From positions 7,886,779 through 7,950,778 of the forward strand of contig NC_030383.2 of NCBI RefSeq assembly GCF_001625215.2: DNA of 64,000 nt, read 5' to 3'. This document shows, piece after piece, positions 29,641 to 35,052 of this stretch (its first letter is position 1; each line of letters starts with the position of its first letter). The notes beneath the pieces are model-generated. The model worked only from the letters and a program-made list of their open reading frames with translations. It was not told the DNA's origin and made no database searches. The position numbers were made by a program, and so were the translations under genes. Source of the stretch: Daucus carota subsp. sativus. Its lineage: Eukaryota > Streptophyta > Magnoliopsida > Apiales > Apiaceae.

Positions 29641-29961
29641 ATCTAGTAGGAATCATTTGCCACTTTCCAGGATTATTTTGTTTACTAAGCAAGATGTTTT
29701 GATCAGTAGAACAGCTTTTATGATTTGAATCAGTGGAGCACAACCTCAGTAACATGTACATATGTATAGTTTGGTTTTCCTCCTCCCTCTCTCCCTGTCT
29801 AATTCATATCTATAGACTTTTATCACTTTAAAGGATGTTTTGCTCAATTTTATGCATTCCAACTATTAGGTTGAGGAAAGGAGTAAATGTTAATTTTGTA
29901 TGAGCACATTTTGTTTTTGCTGATAATTATGAAAAGAATGAAAAATTGTGAAAAGAAGAAC

Positions 29962-30093
29962 AGGAATCAGATGGGTACAAGTGAGAGTGCCCCATTGTCG
30001 TAACCAGGCTTGGGGCGAACACTCGTCTCGCATATTGAAGTGCGAGTTGTGACCACTCATCATATTCCGTTAGCTGCCTGAAGGATCATGATT
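29962..30093 (-). ncRNA. SNORD13: U13-like (SNORD13) box C/D RNA gene, copy 1
   Basis: About 132 nt on the minus strand. Box C ATGATGA is at 30057-30063 and box D CTGA at 29967-29970. The flanking GGAA/TTCC can form the closing stem, with AAC/GTT extending it past a bulge. The 5' segment ATGATCCTTC is complementary to the 3' end of 18S rRNA (GAAGGATCAT), and the later GTTACGAC to the helix 45 region (GTCGTAAC). The order GATCCTT, box C, TTACGAC, GGGCAC, TACCC, CTGA matches vertebrate U13 as I recall it. U13 family RNAs direct 18S cytidine acetylation. Ends are inferred from the TATA box and closing stem. Confidence 0.78.
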
Positions 30094-30114
30094 GTTCAAG
30101 GCGCTTAGTACGCT

Positions 30115-30164
30115 TATTTATAACCAGGAGCACCAGTTTGTTTGTCGCAGCTTCGATGTGGGAC
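30115..30164 (-). promoter_or_regulatory. snRNA-type promoter (USE + TATA) of U13 copy 1
   Basis: On the minus strand the plant upstream sequence element GTCCCACATCG (30154-30164) is followed after 31 bases by TATAAATA (30115-30122), and the inferred RNA start lies 21 bases further on. In plant snRNA genes a USE-TATA gap near 33 bp goes with RNA polymerase II, a gap near 24 bp with polymerase III, so polymerase II is the better fit. Confidence 0.78.
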
Positions 30165-30708
30165 AGAGTGACAGAGTACCGAGCAGAGTTTCTTGTTTTA
30201 TTTGTTTACTATAGTCTATAGGATGTATAAAATTTTGTTCCTTCGCCATTTGTTCTTAGAATGTTTAACTTTTGGAACCGTCCTTCGTGAGGATTTATAC
30301 AGGCTTAGAGTCGAGATATATGGGTGAGAATAAAAGATTTAGTGTTAATTTAATAATTATATTTTGAATTAGAATAGAAGATAGAAATTTGGAAAATAAT
30401 TATAAATTTAAAATAAGAACCATATTATATATTTTTTTTTTTTTACAGTTATATACCAAACTCTAATTATCCTGTATCAAACAACCTATACACTACAAAA
30501 TATAATAGGAATCCGATTTAAGTTCCAATTTTGGTACTTGATTTCTTACCGGATAATGACGCTAGAGCGTTTTATTTAATAGGTTTGCCTCTCAAATTTT
30601 TGCCTCTTATCTCGCTAGTGCTCACGAGCTTCATTAATTATCTTCACGCTTTCTTGATCTCATTGATATTTATTTGAATATTGCTAGAGGAATTTTCTGT
30701 TCATGCAG

Positions 30709-32064
30709 ATGGATTCAGATAGTGATCTTAAATTTCATGATGACTCAGTTTCAGATGAAGATATCGTCCTTCACCTTGACTCTGTGTCAGATGATGATAC
30801 GGACTTTCATGATGATTTAGTTTCCAATGATGATGATGGTAACTTTGATGCTCACTATGATGATGACGGTGATGATGATAATGCTAACTTCTATGATAAC
30901 TCAGTTTCGGATGAGGGTCAAGAGAAACAAAGCTACCGGATCTTGAATGCAAGTGATATTCGAAGAATTCAAGAAAAAGATATAGCAAGTGTATGTTCTT
31001 TACTTTCGGTGACTGCACCTTCTGCACGCGTACTTTTGTACCATTACGAGTGGAACTTAGAGTCTTTAATGGAGCAATGGTTTGCTGATGAAGAACGGGT
31101 CAGAAAAGAAGTTGGGTTGGTACAAAAAGGCTTAAACACTTCCATTGGTAGTACTTTTGTAAGGTTTACTTGTGAAATTTGCTTTGATGAGTTTTGTGCT
31201 GGTGATCAGATAATGAACCGTTTCTGTGACCATAAATATTGCAAGACGTGTTTGGTTAGTTACATTAGCACTGCGATTGATGATGGACCGGGATGCTTGT
31301 CGTTGAGGTGTCCGGATCCCTCGTGCAATGCTGCAATTGGGGTGGATGTGGTTAATTTATTAGTTTATCGTCAATATATGAAAAAGTACAATGAATTTTT
31401 TGTTAGGTCTTACGTCGAAGGTAATAGTAATGTCAAATGGTGTCCTGCCCCGGATTGTGATGCTGCTATTCAGTATAATGGTGATGGTGAAAGCGGAAGC
31501 TATGAAGTTGTTTGTGATTGTTCGTGTAAGTTTTGTTGGCGGTGTACAGAGGATGGTCATCGGCCAGTTGACTGTGATACGGTTGCTAGATGGATCAAGA
31601 AAAATAAGTGTGAGGAATCAAATGTGGAATGGATACTTGCTTATACGAAGCCTTGTCCTAAATGCAAACGACCGATCCAGAAGAACGACGGTTGTATGCA
31701 CATGACATGTAATAGTATGTGTAAGCATCAGTTTTGTTGGACATGTCTACACCCCTGGTCAGATTCCCATAATTGCAATGCTTACGAAGCAGAGCTGAAC
31801 GGTGAAACTATAAAAGAGGCCAAGCGGAGAAAGGAGGCCAGAGCATTGGTGGAGAGATATACTCATTATTACGAAAGGTGGGATGCAAATCAAAGGTCAC
31901 GAATGAAAGCACAATCTGATTTAGAGATGATGCAAAGGAAGAATACTCATGTTCTTTGTGAAAGGTTTGCAGTAACCGAGCTCCAGTTTACATGTGTTAT
32001 AGAAGCCTGGCAACAGATAATTGAATGTAGGCGCGCGTTGAAATGGAGCTATGCATACGGGTAG
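30709..32064 (+). CDS. ARI: ARIADNE-type RBR E3 ubiquitin ligase, intronless, C-terminus cut by MITE
   Basis: A single open frame of 451 residues from MDSDSD (an ATG two codons earlier, at 30703, is also in frame) with homology to ARI7/ARI8. In RBR ligases ubiquitin passes from E2 to a RING2 cysteine and then to the substrate. There is an acidic N-terminus with DSVSD repeats, then a UBA-like helix region, RING1 from about residue 155 (CEICFDEF), IBR (CPAPDCD...CWRC) and RING2 from about 315 (CPKCKRPIQKNDGC). The likely catalytic Cys is in DGCMHMTC. The Ariadne domain begins but the frame ends at ...KWSYAYG, where a MITE supplies TAG. Family genes of this type are usually intron-rich, so the intronless frame suggests a retrocopy. 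Loss of part of the autoinhibitory Ariadne domain could change regulation if the protein is made. Confidence 0.85.
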   Translation: MDSDSDLKFHDDSVSDEDIVLHLDSVSDDDTDFHDDLVSNDDDGNFDAHYDDDGDDDNANFYDNSVSDEGQEKQSYRILNASDIRRIQEKDIASVCSLLSVTAPSARVLLYHYEWNLESLMEQWFADEERVRKEVGLVQKGLNTSIGSTFVRFTCEICFDEFCAGDQIMNRFCDHKYCKTCLVSYISTAIDDGPGCLSLRCPDPSCNAAIGVDVVNLLVYRQYMKKYNEFFVRSYVEGNSNVKWCPAPDCDAAIQYNGDGESGSYEVVCDCSCKFCWRCTEDGHRPVDCDTVARWIKKNKCEESNVEWILAYTKPCPKCKRPIQKNDGCMHMTCNSMCKHQFCWTCLHPWSDSHNCNAYEAELNGETIKEAKRRKEARALVERYTHYYERWDANQRSRMKAQSDLEMMQRKNTHVLCERFAVTELQFTCVIEAWQQIIECRRALKWSYAYG

Positions 32065-32250
32065 GGGTGATCAGAAAACCGCCCAAACCGCATAAACCGC
32101 CCGCACCGCACCAAACCGCACCACAAAATGCGGTTTTTAATTTTCGTGGTGCGGTTGTGGTTTGAATTTTTCACAAACCGCGCGGTGCGGTGCGGGTTGC
32201 GGTTTGACATATTAGTAGTGCGGTTCAAACCGCACCGCGATATCATAATA

Positions 32251-32290
<40 letters not shown>

Positions 32291-32798
32291 TGATTTTCGA
32301 ATAAAACTATATTATATACATATATATTATTTATAGTTATGTTACATATATTTGTTAAATCTCTTCAAATAATAGTTAATTATTATTTTATCAATCTCGC
32401 ATTACTATTATACCAAATTTGTATGAAATGATTATATTATTATAATATGCCTCTTTGTAGTTAGTACTCATATTTATTATCATATTTACAATTTTGTTTG
32501 TGTTTTTTAGTAGTTGTTGTAGTTTTGAAATGATAAATATCATATAAATTTATTACAAGAAAAGATTTTTAATTATTATATATTTAAATTTTATTTCGAA
32601 CTTCAACTAAGAGTATTTATTCTTAAGCATACAAACCGCACAAACCGCACAAACCGCACCGCATTTTTGTGGTGCGGTTTACGCGGTTTTTATGCTAGCG
32701 TGGTGCGGTTGCGGTTTGAGTTTTCAACCAAACCGCATGCGCGGTTTGGTTCGCGGTTTTAACGAAAAACCGCACCGCCCGCACCGCGATCACCCCTA
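32062..32798. mobile_element. hAT-type MITE inserted in ARIADNE coding sequence
   Basis: A 737-bp element with a perfect 11-bp terminal inverted repeat, TAGGGGTGATC...GATCACCCCTA, flanked by a perfect 8-bp target duplication, CATACGGG, at 32054-32061 and 32799-32806. The 8-bp duplication and TAGGGGTG end are the marks of the hAT superfamily. The subterminal regions are packed with AACCGCA/TGCGGTT motifs in both orientations, and the AT-rich middle has a (TA)n run near 32252-32287. There is no transposase, so it is nonautonomous. The clean ends indicate a relatively recent insertion. Confidence 0.93.
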
Positions 32799-32806
32799 CA
32801 TACGGG

Positions 32807-33220
32807 TATTTTATCCCGGAGAATGAACGTGCAAAGGCAGCATTATTTGAGTACTTGCAAGGTGAAGCTGAGGCCGGATTAGAGAGGCTTCATCGATGTG
32901 CAGAGAAGGAACTGGCTATGGTTCTGAAGGATGTTAATGCAACTGTAGATGAATTTGAAAATTTTCGGGTGAAGCTGGTGGAACTTACGAAAGTGACTAG
33001 AAATTACTTCGCAAATCTGGTGACAGCACTGGAGAACAATCTAGGTGAAAGTGAAAATAGAGGTGCGCCAGAAGGGAAGAGCAGAAAAATAGTGAAAAAT
33101 AAGACAGAAGGGAAGAGCAGAAAAATAGTGAAAAATAAGAAGAAGCAATTTAGTAAACAAAAGGAGAAAAGGAGCAAAGGAGAAAGGCATAAAAAAGAAA
33201 TAGTCTTCATACGGACCTGA
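32807..33220 (+). pseudogene. Separated 3' part of the ARIADNE gene
   Basis: This continues the ARIADNE coding frame directly after the MITE target duplication, starting YFIPENERAKAALFEYLQGE and giving 137 residues before TGA. It matches the family sequence that follows ...WTYAYG in ARI7/ARI8 (YYLPDDEHAK...EYLQGEAESGLERLHQCAEKEL). The frame is still open to its stop and the tail holds an 11-residue tandem repeat (EGKSRKIVKNK twice). It is cut off from translation by the MITE stop unless the MITE is spliced out or the stop is read through. Confidence 0.85.
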
Positions 33221-33482
33221 CCGTTACAGATCTCACAAGCCTGGATTTTAATCTATAAGGGGTCAATCAGAAACTATAAATCTTGTTTATCTAGTGATTT
33301 TGATTAGCGGTTAACGGTTAGCGAATTAAATTAGATATTTTAACTAGCCGATGAAAATAAATATTTTGATTAGTGTATTGGACTAACGATTTCTTTTAAC
33401 AATATTTGATTCATAACTGTTTGATTAGATTTTTATGACATACCAAAAGTCCAAAAACTCTAATCCAAAAAATTTCCTGAAG

Positions 33483-34035
33483 GGGTTAATTATCAAGTTG
33501 GTCACTGAAGTGGGCTTAATGTATCAAGTTGGTCACTGAACTCAAAACGGTATCAAGATGGTCACTGAAGTGGCCATAAATATCAAACAAGTACCTTGAA
33601 ATATGAGTTCAAGCACTAAAAATATTATTTATAAAGTTTTACATATTATTTTTAAATGTTACCAAAACCAAGTAAAATGTTATGACTTCTAATATTTATG
33701 ACAAAAAATTTAGATTTTATCAAATTTATTTATTATTTATTTATAATTAAAACAAAGAAATAACTATATAATAAAATATAAATAATAAATAAACTTGATA
33801 AAATCTAAATTTTTTGTCATAAATATTAGAAGTCATAACCTTTTACTTGGTTTTGGTAACATTCAAAAATAATGTGTAAAACTTTATAAATAATATTTTT
33901 AGTGCTTGAACTCAAATTTCAAGGTACTTGTTTGATATTTATGGCCACTTCAGTGACCATCTTGATACCGTTTTGAGTTCAGTGACCAACTTGATACATT
34001 AAGCCCACTTCAGTGACCAACTTGATAATTAACCC
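33483..34035. mobile_element. Mutator-like long-TIR MITE, copy 1
   Basis: A 553-bp foldback element, almost entirely two long inverted arms starting GGGTTAATTATCAAGTTGGT. It is flanked by a 10-bp direct repeat with one mismatch, TTTCCTGAAG (33473-33482) and TTTCTTGAAG (34036-34045). Long arms with a 9-11-bp target duplication fit the Mutator superfamily. The same family recurs at 56758. Confidence 0.85.
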
Positions 34036-34331
34036 TTTCTTGAAGTAGTTTTTTGAAATTTAGCTTTTTGAATCGAAACTTCTATTTCAATCCGCTACCT
34101 TTAATTCCATTTCAATTTTGCCTCTAATTCTATTTCAATTCGCTAACTCTAATTATATCTCAAAACCTCAAATGTTTTACACAGCGTTTAGCTTAATGCT
34201 AAAGGTCAACTGACAACTGACACCTCACAAGCGTGTTTTGATGGATAAAACCGTTTTTATGGTTTTCCTGAATGCTAATTTTGTAGAGCACATTTTGATT
34301 TTGCAAATGTTTGTGGAAAACAATGATGGAA

Positions 34332-34464
34332 CTGGAATCAGATGGGTACAGAAGAGAGTGCCCCATTGTCGTAACCAGGCTTGGAGCGAACACTCATCTC
34401 GCATATAAGACTGCGAGTTATGACCACTCATCATATCCCGTTAGCTGCCTGAAGGATCATGATT
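34332..34464 (-). ncRNA. SNORD13: U13-like (SNORD13) box C/D RNA gene, copy 2
   Basis: A minus-strand paralogue of the RNA at 29962-30093, about 133 nt. Box C ATGATGA (34428-34434), box D CTGA (34338-34341), the rRNA-complementary ATGATCCTTC and GTTACGAC, and GGGGCAC are all kept. The closing stem changes from GGAA/TTCC to GGGA/TTCC, a change that keeps pairing through a G-U pair. Similarity to copy 1 extends beyond the RNA on both sides, so the locus was copied as a segment. Conservation of functional boxes with variation between them supports a working RNA. Confidence 0.78.
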
Positions 34465-34485
34465 CTTCAAGGGGCTCAGTACGCT

Positions 34486-34534
34486 TATTTATAACCAGGC
34501 GGACCAGTTTGTTCGCCGCAGCCCGATGTGGGAC
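34486..34534 (-). promoter_or_regulatory. snRNA-type promoter (USE + TATA) of U13 copy 2
   Basis: Minus strand: GTCCCACATCG (34524-34534), a 30-base gap, TATAAATA (34486-34493), then 21 bases to the inferred RNA start. This is the same layout as copy 1, with one base less between USE and TATA. Confidence 0.78.
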
Positions 34535-35052
34535 GGACTATACTGAACAAGAGGATGAGATGAACTTTGAAAGCTCTACTAGGATGTATAGCTTTACCTT
34601 CCTTGCCATTTGTTTTTCGTAGAATATTAGAGAACTCTTCCATGAATCCTAACTAAACTCCAACCCAATGAAAGAAGAACCTTAAAATGTTTTAAAGATG
34701 TACTTAATTAATTAACATATAACTAGCCAAGAAAATATAAAATTTTAGGTTTCAGATAGCTTGGAATGTGTATGTTAAGAAGGACTTATATAATTTATTG
34801 ATATTAGACCGTTGGATGATACTTTCAACGACAGCATTATAACGATATTCCGTTATGAGTGTTTTCTCCTGCTGAACAGATAAATACTCATTTCACTCGA
34901 CAAGCTCTGAACAAGTAAATATCAATTTCTGTCATATAGTTAAAAACGTTGAGCAAATAAATACTCATTTCAGTCTCAAGGGAAAAAAACGCAGTGACCC
35001 ATCGGATAGTCCCCAATACAAGTCCTTCATGTCATGCACATGGCGGACCACG

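What the first reader, a model, noticed from the sequence alone, without database searches (positions are those of the whole stretch)
29961..34535. Two U13-like (SNORD13) RNA genes with snRNA-type promoters flanking an ARIADNE gene
Both minus-strand segments combine a USE, a TATA box 30-31 bases on, 18S-complementary segments (ATGATCCTTC, GTTACGAC), boxes C and D and a closing stem kept by a G-U-compatible change. Each part is visible in the sequence; the U13 identity rests on recalled similarity to vertebrate U13. These loci carry no protein and would be missed by gene prediction. Duplication within 4.4 kb, with functional parts kept, suggests both may be expressed.
Basis: partly seen in the sequence, partly recalled or inferred. 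Interest (0 to 1): 0.7.

Follow-up and report, generated by a model that had tools for sequence, protein, structure and literature searches.

The report
Two plant U13 snoRNA genes
Two nearby copies of a known plant small RNA gene (U13, which most likely guides acetylation of one letter near the end of 18S ribosomal RNA), each with its own snRNA-type promoter; real and well preserved, but an ordinary member of a known family.

Summary
Both minus-strand segments match Rfam RF00304 (snoZ279/R105/R108, box C/D) at 92.5 and 91.7 bits. Each has a perfect USE, a TATA box 31 or 30 bases on, a 10-base match to the 3' end of 18S, a second element pairing 14 of 15 bases just 5' of the helix-45 cytidine, boxes C and D and a closing stem. 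USE-TATA spacing resembles this genome's U5, not U6. The 18S footprints coincide with or overlap those of yeast snR45, the proven guide. Two further copies (C7, C2) keep these parts. The U13 reading is supported, but not new in kind: plant U13 orthologues were reported in 2010 (title seen in reference lists; paper not held), and Rfam finds the loci unaided. Against: the vertebrate U13 model RF01210 was not seen to match here, for reasons these tools cannot settle; the pair has no evident 3' box; USE+TATA pairs recur in repeats. Expression and acetylation are untested. The ARIADNE gene between the copies seems unrelated.

The parts
30154..30164 (-). USE, GTCCCACATCG, 11 of 11 to consensus RTCCCACATCG (copy C3a)
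   Evidence: consensus in PMC9845283 passages
30115..30122 (-). TATA box TATAAATA, 31 bases after the USE (C3a)
29963..30089 (-). U13 snoRNA, copy C3a, about 127 nt (5' end uncertain by a few bases)
   Evidence: RF00304 covers 29963-30068; 5' part by 18S pairing
30074..30089 (-). guide 1, ATGATCCTTCAGGCAG: 10 + 4 base pairs with the 3' end of 18S (C3a)
   Evidence: identical in 4 of 4 copies
30057..30063 (-). box C ATGATGA (C3a)
30027..30046 (-). central stem-loop, CTCGCA/TGCGAG (C3a)
29997..30011 (-). guide 2, AAGCCTGGTTACGAC: 14 of 15 bases pair with GUCGUAACAAGGUUU of 18S, just 5' of the helix-45 cytidine (C3a)
29967..29970 (-). box D CTGA (C3a)
34524..34534 (-). USE, GTCCCACATCG (copy C3b)
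34486..34493 (-). TATA box TATAAATA, 30 bases after the USE (C3b)
34334..34460 (-). U13 snoRNA, copy C3b, about 127 nt
   Evidence: RF00304 covers 34334-34439
34445..34460 (-). guide 1 (C3b)
34428..34434 (-). box C ATGATGA (C3b)
34398..34417 (-). central stem-loop CTCGCA/TGCGAG (C3b)
34368..34382 (-). guide 2 (C3b)
34338..34341 (-). box D CTGA (C3b)
30688..33220 (+). ARIADNE-type gene between the copies: open stretch 30688-32064 with Pfam hits, and 32720-33220, its likely continuation by recalled resemblance only (no Pfam hit); context, not part of the RNA genes

Best explanation
Two tandem, separately promoted plant U13 (SNORD13-type) box C/D snoRNA genes. Each is probably transcribed by RNA polymerase II from a USE + TATA snRNA-type promoter into an RNA of about 130 nt. 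Boxes C and D and the closing stem would bind the core C/D proteins. The 5' guide pairs with the last bases of 18S and the second guide pairs just 5' of the helix-45 cytidine; together they leave about 12 unpaired bases of 18S, with the target cytidine in them, for the NAT10/Kre33-type acetyltransferase to make ac4C. Shown here: sequence parts, pairing potential, promoter spacing, conservation across four genomic copies, presence of an acetyltransferase domain in the genome. Inferred: transcription, cap, protein binding, acetylation.
For: RF00304 matches at 92.5 and 91.7 bits and two more genomic copies at 77.5 and 76.5. Guide 1 (16 bases) and GTTACGACAA of guide 2 are invariant in 4 of 4 copies. 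Duplex energies are -21.2 to -21.3 and -19.0 to -19.5 kcal/mol; shuffles of the same letters reach them in 2-3 of 5000 and 0 of 5000. Both matches together: 0 of 40,000 shuffles in each of three RNAs. Guide 1 falls within the yeast snR45 GS1 footprint (18S 1781-1798) and guide 2 overlaps GS2 (1760-1767); disrupting GS1 in yeast abolished, and disrupting GS2 cut by 82%, acetylation of C1773 (the transfer to plant positions is my arithmetic with a recalled 18S sequence). USE-TATA gaps are 30, 31, 32, 32 in the four U13 copies; among promoters scoring 15 or more, 30-33 in 10 of 11 U5 and 18-26 in 16 of 16 U6. Central stem: in 3 of 6 pairs at least one copy differs on both sides with pairing kept (register set by hand). 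Acetyltransferase domain PF13718 present on C1 in three pieces.
Against: RF01210 (vertebrate snoU13) was not reported at these loci: genome-wide at E up to 10 it gave three weak hits elsewhere (51 of 28,935 first-look candidates scored; whether these loci were among them is not stated), and a direct scan of 351 bases at E up to 10 did not list it, though one lower-scoring same-clan match was hidden there. The window copies have no CA(N3-12)AGTNNAA 3' box within 60 bases, 0 of 2 (1 of 4 over all copies); the test is weak: U5 13 of 24, U2 2 of 16, U6 as control 4 of 21. USE + TATA at gaps 28-35 matches 247 times in the genome (control 1; some places counted twice), and many of the listed places look like repeat arrays, so the promoter pair alone is not specific. 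The genome's own intact 18S was not found. No expression data.
Confidence: 0.9

Rival explanations
1. A box C/D snoRNA of the snoR105/R108 family that guides ordinary 2'-O-methylation through the bases before box D, with the 18S complementarity incidental.
For: It has good boxes C and D and a closing stem, and Rfam types the family as CD-box snoRNA.
Against: The bases before box D differ between copies (CACTTGTACCCAT, TTCTGTACCCAT, ATATTGAACCAAT in C3a, C3b, C7), while the cores of both 18S elements are invariant. [quoted passage not shown] The bipartite match was not reached in 40,000 shuffles.
Confidence: 0.03
2. One or both window copies are non-expressed pseudogenes beside active copies elsewhere.
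For: There are four copies in the genome, and the pair has no clear 3' box.
Against: The pair has the best promoter matches of the four (joint score 18 of 18 each, against 17 for C7 and 15 for C2) and the best RF00304 scores. Their differences avoid the boxes and guides.
Confidence: 0.08
3. Pol III transcripts with U3/U6-type promoters.
For: The USE + TATA architecture is shared with U6 and U3 genes in plants (PMC9845283 passages).
Against: The USE-TATA gap is 30-32, not 18-26 as in this genome's scored U6 promoters.
Confidence: 0.05

Closest known systems
Plant U13 orthologues (Arabidopsis; Kim et al. 2010, title seen in reference lists only) and Rfam RF00304 snoZ279/snoR105/snoR108
   Same: RF00304 matches over 106 of 106 positions.
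   Different: RF00304 starts at the closing stem and leaves out the 5' guide and the promoter; the genes here are a tandem pair. That RF00304 and Kim's U13 are the same RNAs is likely but was not read.
Vertebrate SNORD13 (U13), Rfam RF01210
   Same: Guide elements around the helix-45 cytidine, C/D class, independent transcription (PMC7277114, PMC12187516 passages).
   Different: RF01210 was not seen to match these loci. Guide 2 here has one mismatch (C3 pair) or one bulge (C7, C2).
Yeast snR45
   Same: 5' guide before box C and a second guide further 3'; guide 1 ends on the same 18S base by my arithmetic, and guide 2 overlaps GS2.
   Different: Guidance of Kre33 was shown by experiment there, not here; guide 2 pairing here spans a longer stretch of 18S than GS2.

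Membership tests
RF00304 snoZ279_R105_R108 | Covariance score over the gathering score of 54 bits | tested here: met
   92.5 and 91.7 bits
U13/SNORD13-type acetylation guide | 5' element before box C complementary to the 3' end of 18S | tested here: met
   ATGATCCTTC, 10 exact pairs plus 4, in 4 of 4 copies, against a recalled 18S end
U13/SNORD13-type acetylation guide | Second element complementary to 18S just 5' of the helix-45 cytidine | tested here: met
   14 pairs with one mismatch (C3 pair) or one bulge (C7, C2). The 18S used is the recalled canonical form; the single near-copy found in the assembly differs by one base, outside both paired stretches
U13/SNORD13-type acetylation guide | Boxes C and D with closing stem | tested here: met
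U13/SNORD13-type acetylation guide | Independent Pol II transcription, capped RNA | tested here: inconclusive
   Promoter spacing fits Pol II; no 3' box seen in the pair; no RNA data
U13/SNORD13-type acetylation guide | Required for ac4C in helix 45 | not testable with these tools
   needs an experiment
RF01210 snoU13 (vertebrate model) | Covariance score over the gathering score of 46 bits | tested here: inconclusive
   Not reported at these loci in the genome search (51 of 28,935 candidates scored) nor in the direct scan, where one same-clan overlapping match was hidden and its family and score are not shown; if that was RF01210 it scored below RF00304. The whole-window scan also lists only the best match of a clan

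The most novel reading that the evidence does not exclude
This genome keeps two U13 lineages (the C3 pair, and C7 with C2) whose guide 2 pairs with 18S differently (a mismatch against a bulge) and whose promoters differ in match to consensus, so that helix-45 acetylation might be tuned by copy choice, or one lineage might have taken on another target.
Probability: 0.05. Interest if true: 0.45.

Novelty: new member of a known kind. Interest (0 to 1): 0.22.

Why it matters
It is a clean annotation of a ribosome-modification RNA gene, with promoter spacing that argues for Pol II transcription in this plant. If RF00304 RNAs are U13, it would also explain why SnoR105 and SnoR108 are listed as orphans in a methylation survey: the Rfam model leaves out the 5' guide, and the target would be an acetylated base, not a methylated ribose. 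Four copies with copy-specific bases make a direct expression and acetylation test simple. In human cells SNORD13-dependent ac4C is reported as dispensable for growth (PMC12187516 passages), so a strong phenotype should not be assumed.

Tried and rejected
Looked for the genome's own 18S: the family search failed on the machine, an exact 40-base pattern found none, and a 41-base pattern with up to 3 mismatches found one place, which proved to be a short 18S 3'-end fragment with sequence after it. So the pairing tests use the recalled canonical 18S end. A cmscan of 51 bases at the 5' end alone, to see whether RF01210 would surface, did not show it. The first four-copy alignment used wrong positions and strand for the two outside copies and was discarded; one search replaces it. 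The 3' box test was uninformative: CA(N3-12)AGTNNAA in U2 2 of 16, U5 13 of 24, U6 4 of 21, U13 1 of 4 (I gave it 16 of 30 U2, 21 of 27 U6, and all 24 U5 and 4 U13 loci); AGTMNAA in 7 of 16, 0 of 24, 2 of 21 and 1 of 4. Duplication of the ARIADNE gene together with the RNA was rejected: the repeated stretch is about 280 bases. Relatives in other Apiaceae: G000 has no relatives in this tool and other plant genomes are not among the collections offered, so conservation outside this genome was not tested. Literature searches used; no claim is made that anything is absent from print.

Confidence in the best explanation went from 0.92 to 0.90 because of the RF01210 correction, and the Pol III rival from 0.04 to 0.05.
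Full report
What is there. Both minus-strand segments are real. cmscan of the whole window at gathering thresholds gave two hits, both to RF00304 (snoZ279_R105_R108): 29963-30068 at 92.5 bits and 34334-34439 at 91.7 bits, each over the full 106-position model. Read on the minus strand, each locus has in order a perfect USE, a TATAAATA box 31 or 30 bases on, a stretch ATGATCCTTCAGGCAG, box C, a central hairpin, a stretch AAGCCTGGTTACGAC, and box D with a closing stem. Between the copies, 0 of 11 USE, 0 of 8 TATA, 0 of 16 guide-1, 0 of 15 guide-2, 0 of 7 box C and 0 of 4 box D positions differ. Counted on positions of the first copy, 9 of 127 differ or are missing in the whole RNA (the second copy has 2 further bases), 6 of 31 in the USE-TATA spacer, 3 of 25 between TATA and RNA, and 24 of 77 in the 3' flank. 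The repeated stretch is about 280 bases (29886-30167 and 34271-34537, 84% identical) and does not include the protein gene.

Other copies. The genome search reports four places over the RF00304 cut-off: these two, and one each on C7 (77.5 bits) and C2 (76.5 bits) (51 of 8031 first-look candidates were scored). All four keep the 16 bases of guide 1, GTTACGACAA of guide 2, box D, and a box C of the form RTGATGA. In the central stem, 3 of 6 pairs have a change on both sides in at least one copy with pairing kept (register set by hand, four sequences, two of them alike). The C2 copy lies about 0.8 kb from a U6 gene and 3.4 kb from a U1 gene; the 3.1 kb around the C7 copy had no other Rfam hit.

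Pairing with 18S. Guide 1 makes 10 consecutive Watson-Crick pairs with GAAGGAUCAU at the 3' end of 18S, then 4 more across a small internal loop. Guide 2 pairs 14 of 15 bases of GUCGUAACAAGGUUU in the C3 pair, and 14 with one bulge in C7 and C2. These flank 12 bases that hold the helix-45 cytidine. Energies are -21.2 to -21.3 and -19.0 to -19.5 kcal/mol; letter shuffles of the elements reached them in 2-3 of 5000 and 0 of 5000. Shuffling whole RNAs (40,000 dinucleotide shuffles each of C3a, C3b and C7; C2 not done), a match of 8 or more on the 5' side of the cytidine occurred in 188-329 and a match of 10 or more on the 3' side in 61-79, never both. The 18S sequence used is recalled. The only near-copy found in the assembly is a fragment with one differing base, in the unpaired stretch.

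Comparison with the proven system. In yeast, snR45 guides acetylation of C1773 with GS1 on 18S 1781-1798 and GS2 on 1760-1767; disrupting GS1 abolished acetylation there and disrupting GS2 cut it by 82% (PMC5464676, section 8 read). By my arithmetic guide 1 here covers 1784-1787 and 1789-1798, and guide 2 covers 1757-1764 and 1766-1771, in yeast numbering. The same paper calls U13 a vertebrate or plant specific snoRNA and cites Kim et al. [quoted passage not shown] That paper and Bortolin-Cavaille et al. 2022 are not held, so what they say beyond their titles was not seen. I recall, without a call, that Kim et al. described three related capped RNAs as U13. An Arabidopsis methylation survey lists SnoR105 and SnoR108 among expressed snoRNAs that appear to be orphans (PMC8053127 passages); a U13-type acetylation guide would look so.

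The vertebrate model. RF01210 (snoU13) was not reported at these loci. The genome search at E up to 10 gave three weak hits elsewhere (best 17.7 bits; 51 of 28,935 first-look candidates scored, and the output does not say whether these loci were among them). A direct scan of 351 bases at E up to 10 did not list it either, but one lower-scoring overlapping match of the same clan was left out of that table and its family is not shown. So this test is open and counts mildly against close likeness to vertebrate U13.

Promoter. [quoted passage not shown] In this genome, counting promoters with a joint score of 15 or more, gaps are 30-33 in 10 of 11 U5 (24 loci examined), 18-26 in 16 of 16 U6 (27 examined), 26-35 in 7 U2 (30 examined, of which 11 are short hits of about 120 bases of doubtful identity), and 30, 31, 32, 32 in the four U13 copies. 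Three of the ten U5 gaps rest on poor TATA matches. This supports Pol II. Two cautions: USE + TATA at gaps 28-35 matches 247 times in the genome against 1 for the reversed pattern, some places counted twice and many of the listed ones apparently in repeated arrays; and no 3' box was found in the window pair.

Machinery. The NAT10/Kre33-type acetyltransferase domain PF13718 is found on C1 in three pieces within 2.4 kb, which I take for exons.

Surroundings. The gene between the copies is an ARIADNE-type ubiquitin-ligase gene on the plus strand (IBR 5.7e-20, UBA_ARI1 2e-11; Ariadne 23.3 bits against a cut-off of 23.5 and RING 20.5 against 27.3). Nothing ties it to the RNA genes.

Verdict. It is a new member of a known kind, found by standard Rfam annotation; interest is low.

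Noticed in passing
33450-34071: A 622-base stretch that matches its own reverse complement at 91% identity (two arms of about 310 bases), between the ARIADNE gene and the second U13 copy; looks like a foldback element or MITE.
   Followed up: no
32064-32720: The ARIADNE reading frame breaks off at 32064 and its likely continuation resumes in 32720-33220 (no Pfam hit there); the stretch between holds inverted and direct repeats. Intron or insertion, not resolved.
   Followed up: no
L008 and L040 (C2:35955649-35959283): The C2 copy of U13 sits near a U1 and a U6 gene, converging with U6.
   Followed up: partly
G000, many places on C1-C4: USE-like TCCCACATCG followed by a TATATAA-like box at about 30 bases recurs in tight arrays (copies about 125 bases or 7 kb apart) that were not identified; perhaps a repeat family carrying snRNA-type promoters.
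   Followed up: no
L040 1501-1620 and similar hits: Eleven of the 30 fetched RF00004 (U2) hits are only about 120 bases long; the one re-scanned (L040) was not called U2 by cmscan at gathering. Their identity is open.
   Followed up: partly
29886-29913 and 34271-34296: AAAATGTGCTC(A)TACAAAATTA(A/G)CATT is kept downstream of both U13 copies although the bases nearer the gene have diverged; possibly a 3' processing signal or a chance remnant.
   Followed up: no
L096 (C3:51682900-51683060): The only near-match to the 18S 3' end found in the assembly is a short fragment; intact rDNA seems to be missing from, or withheld in, the assembly.
   Followed up: partly
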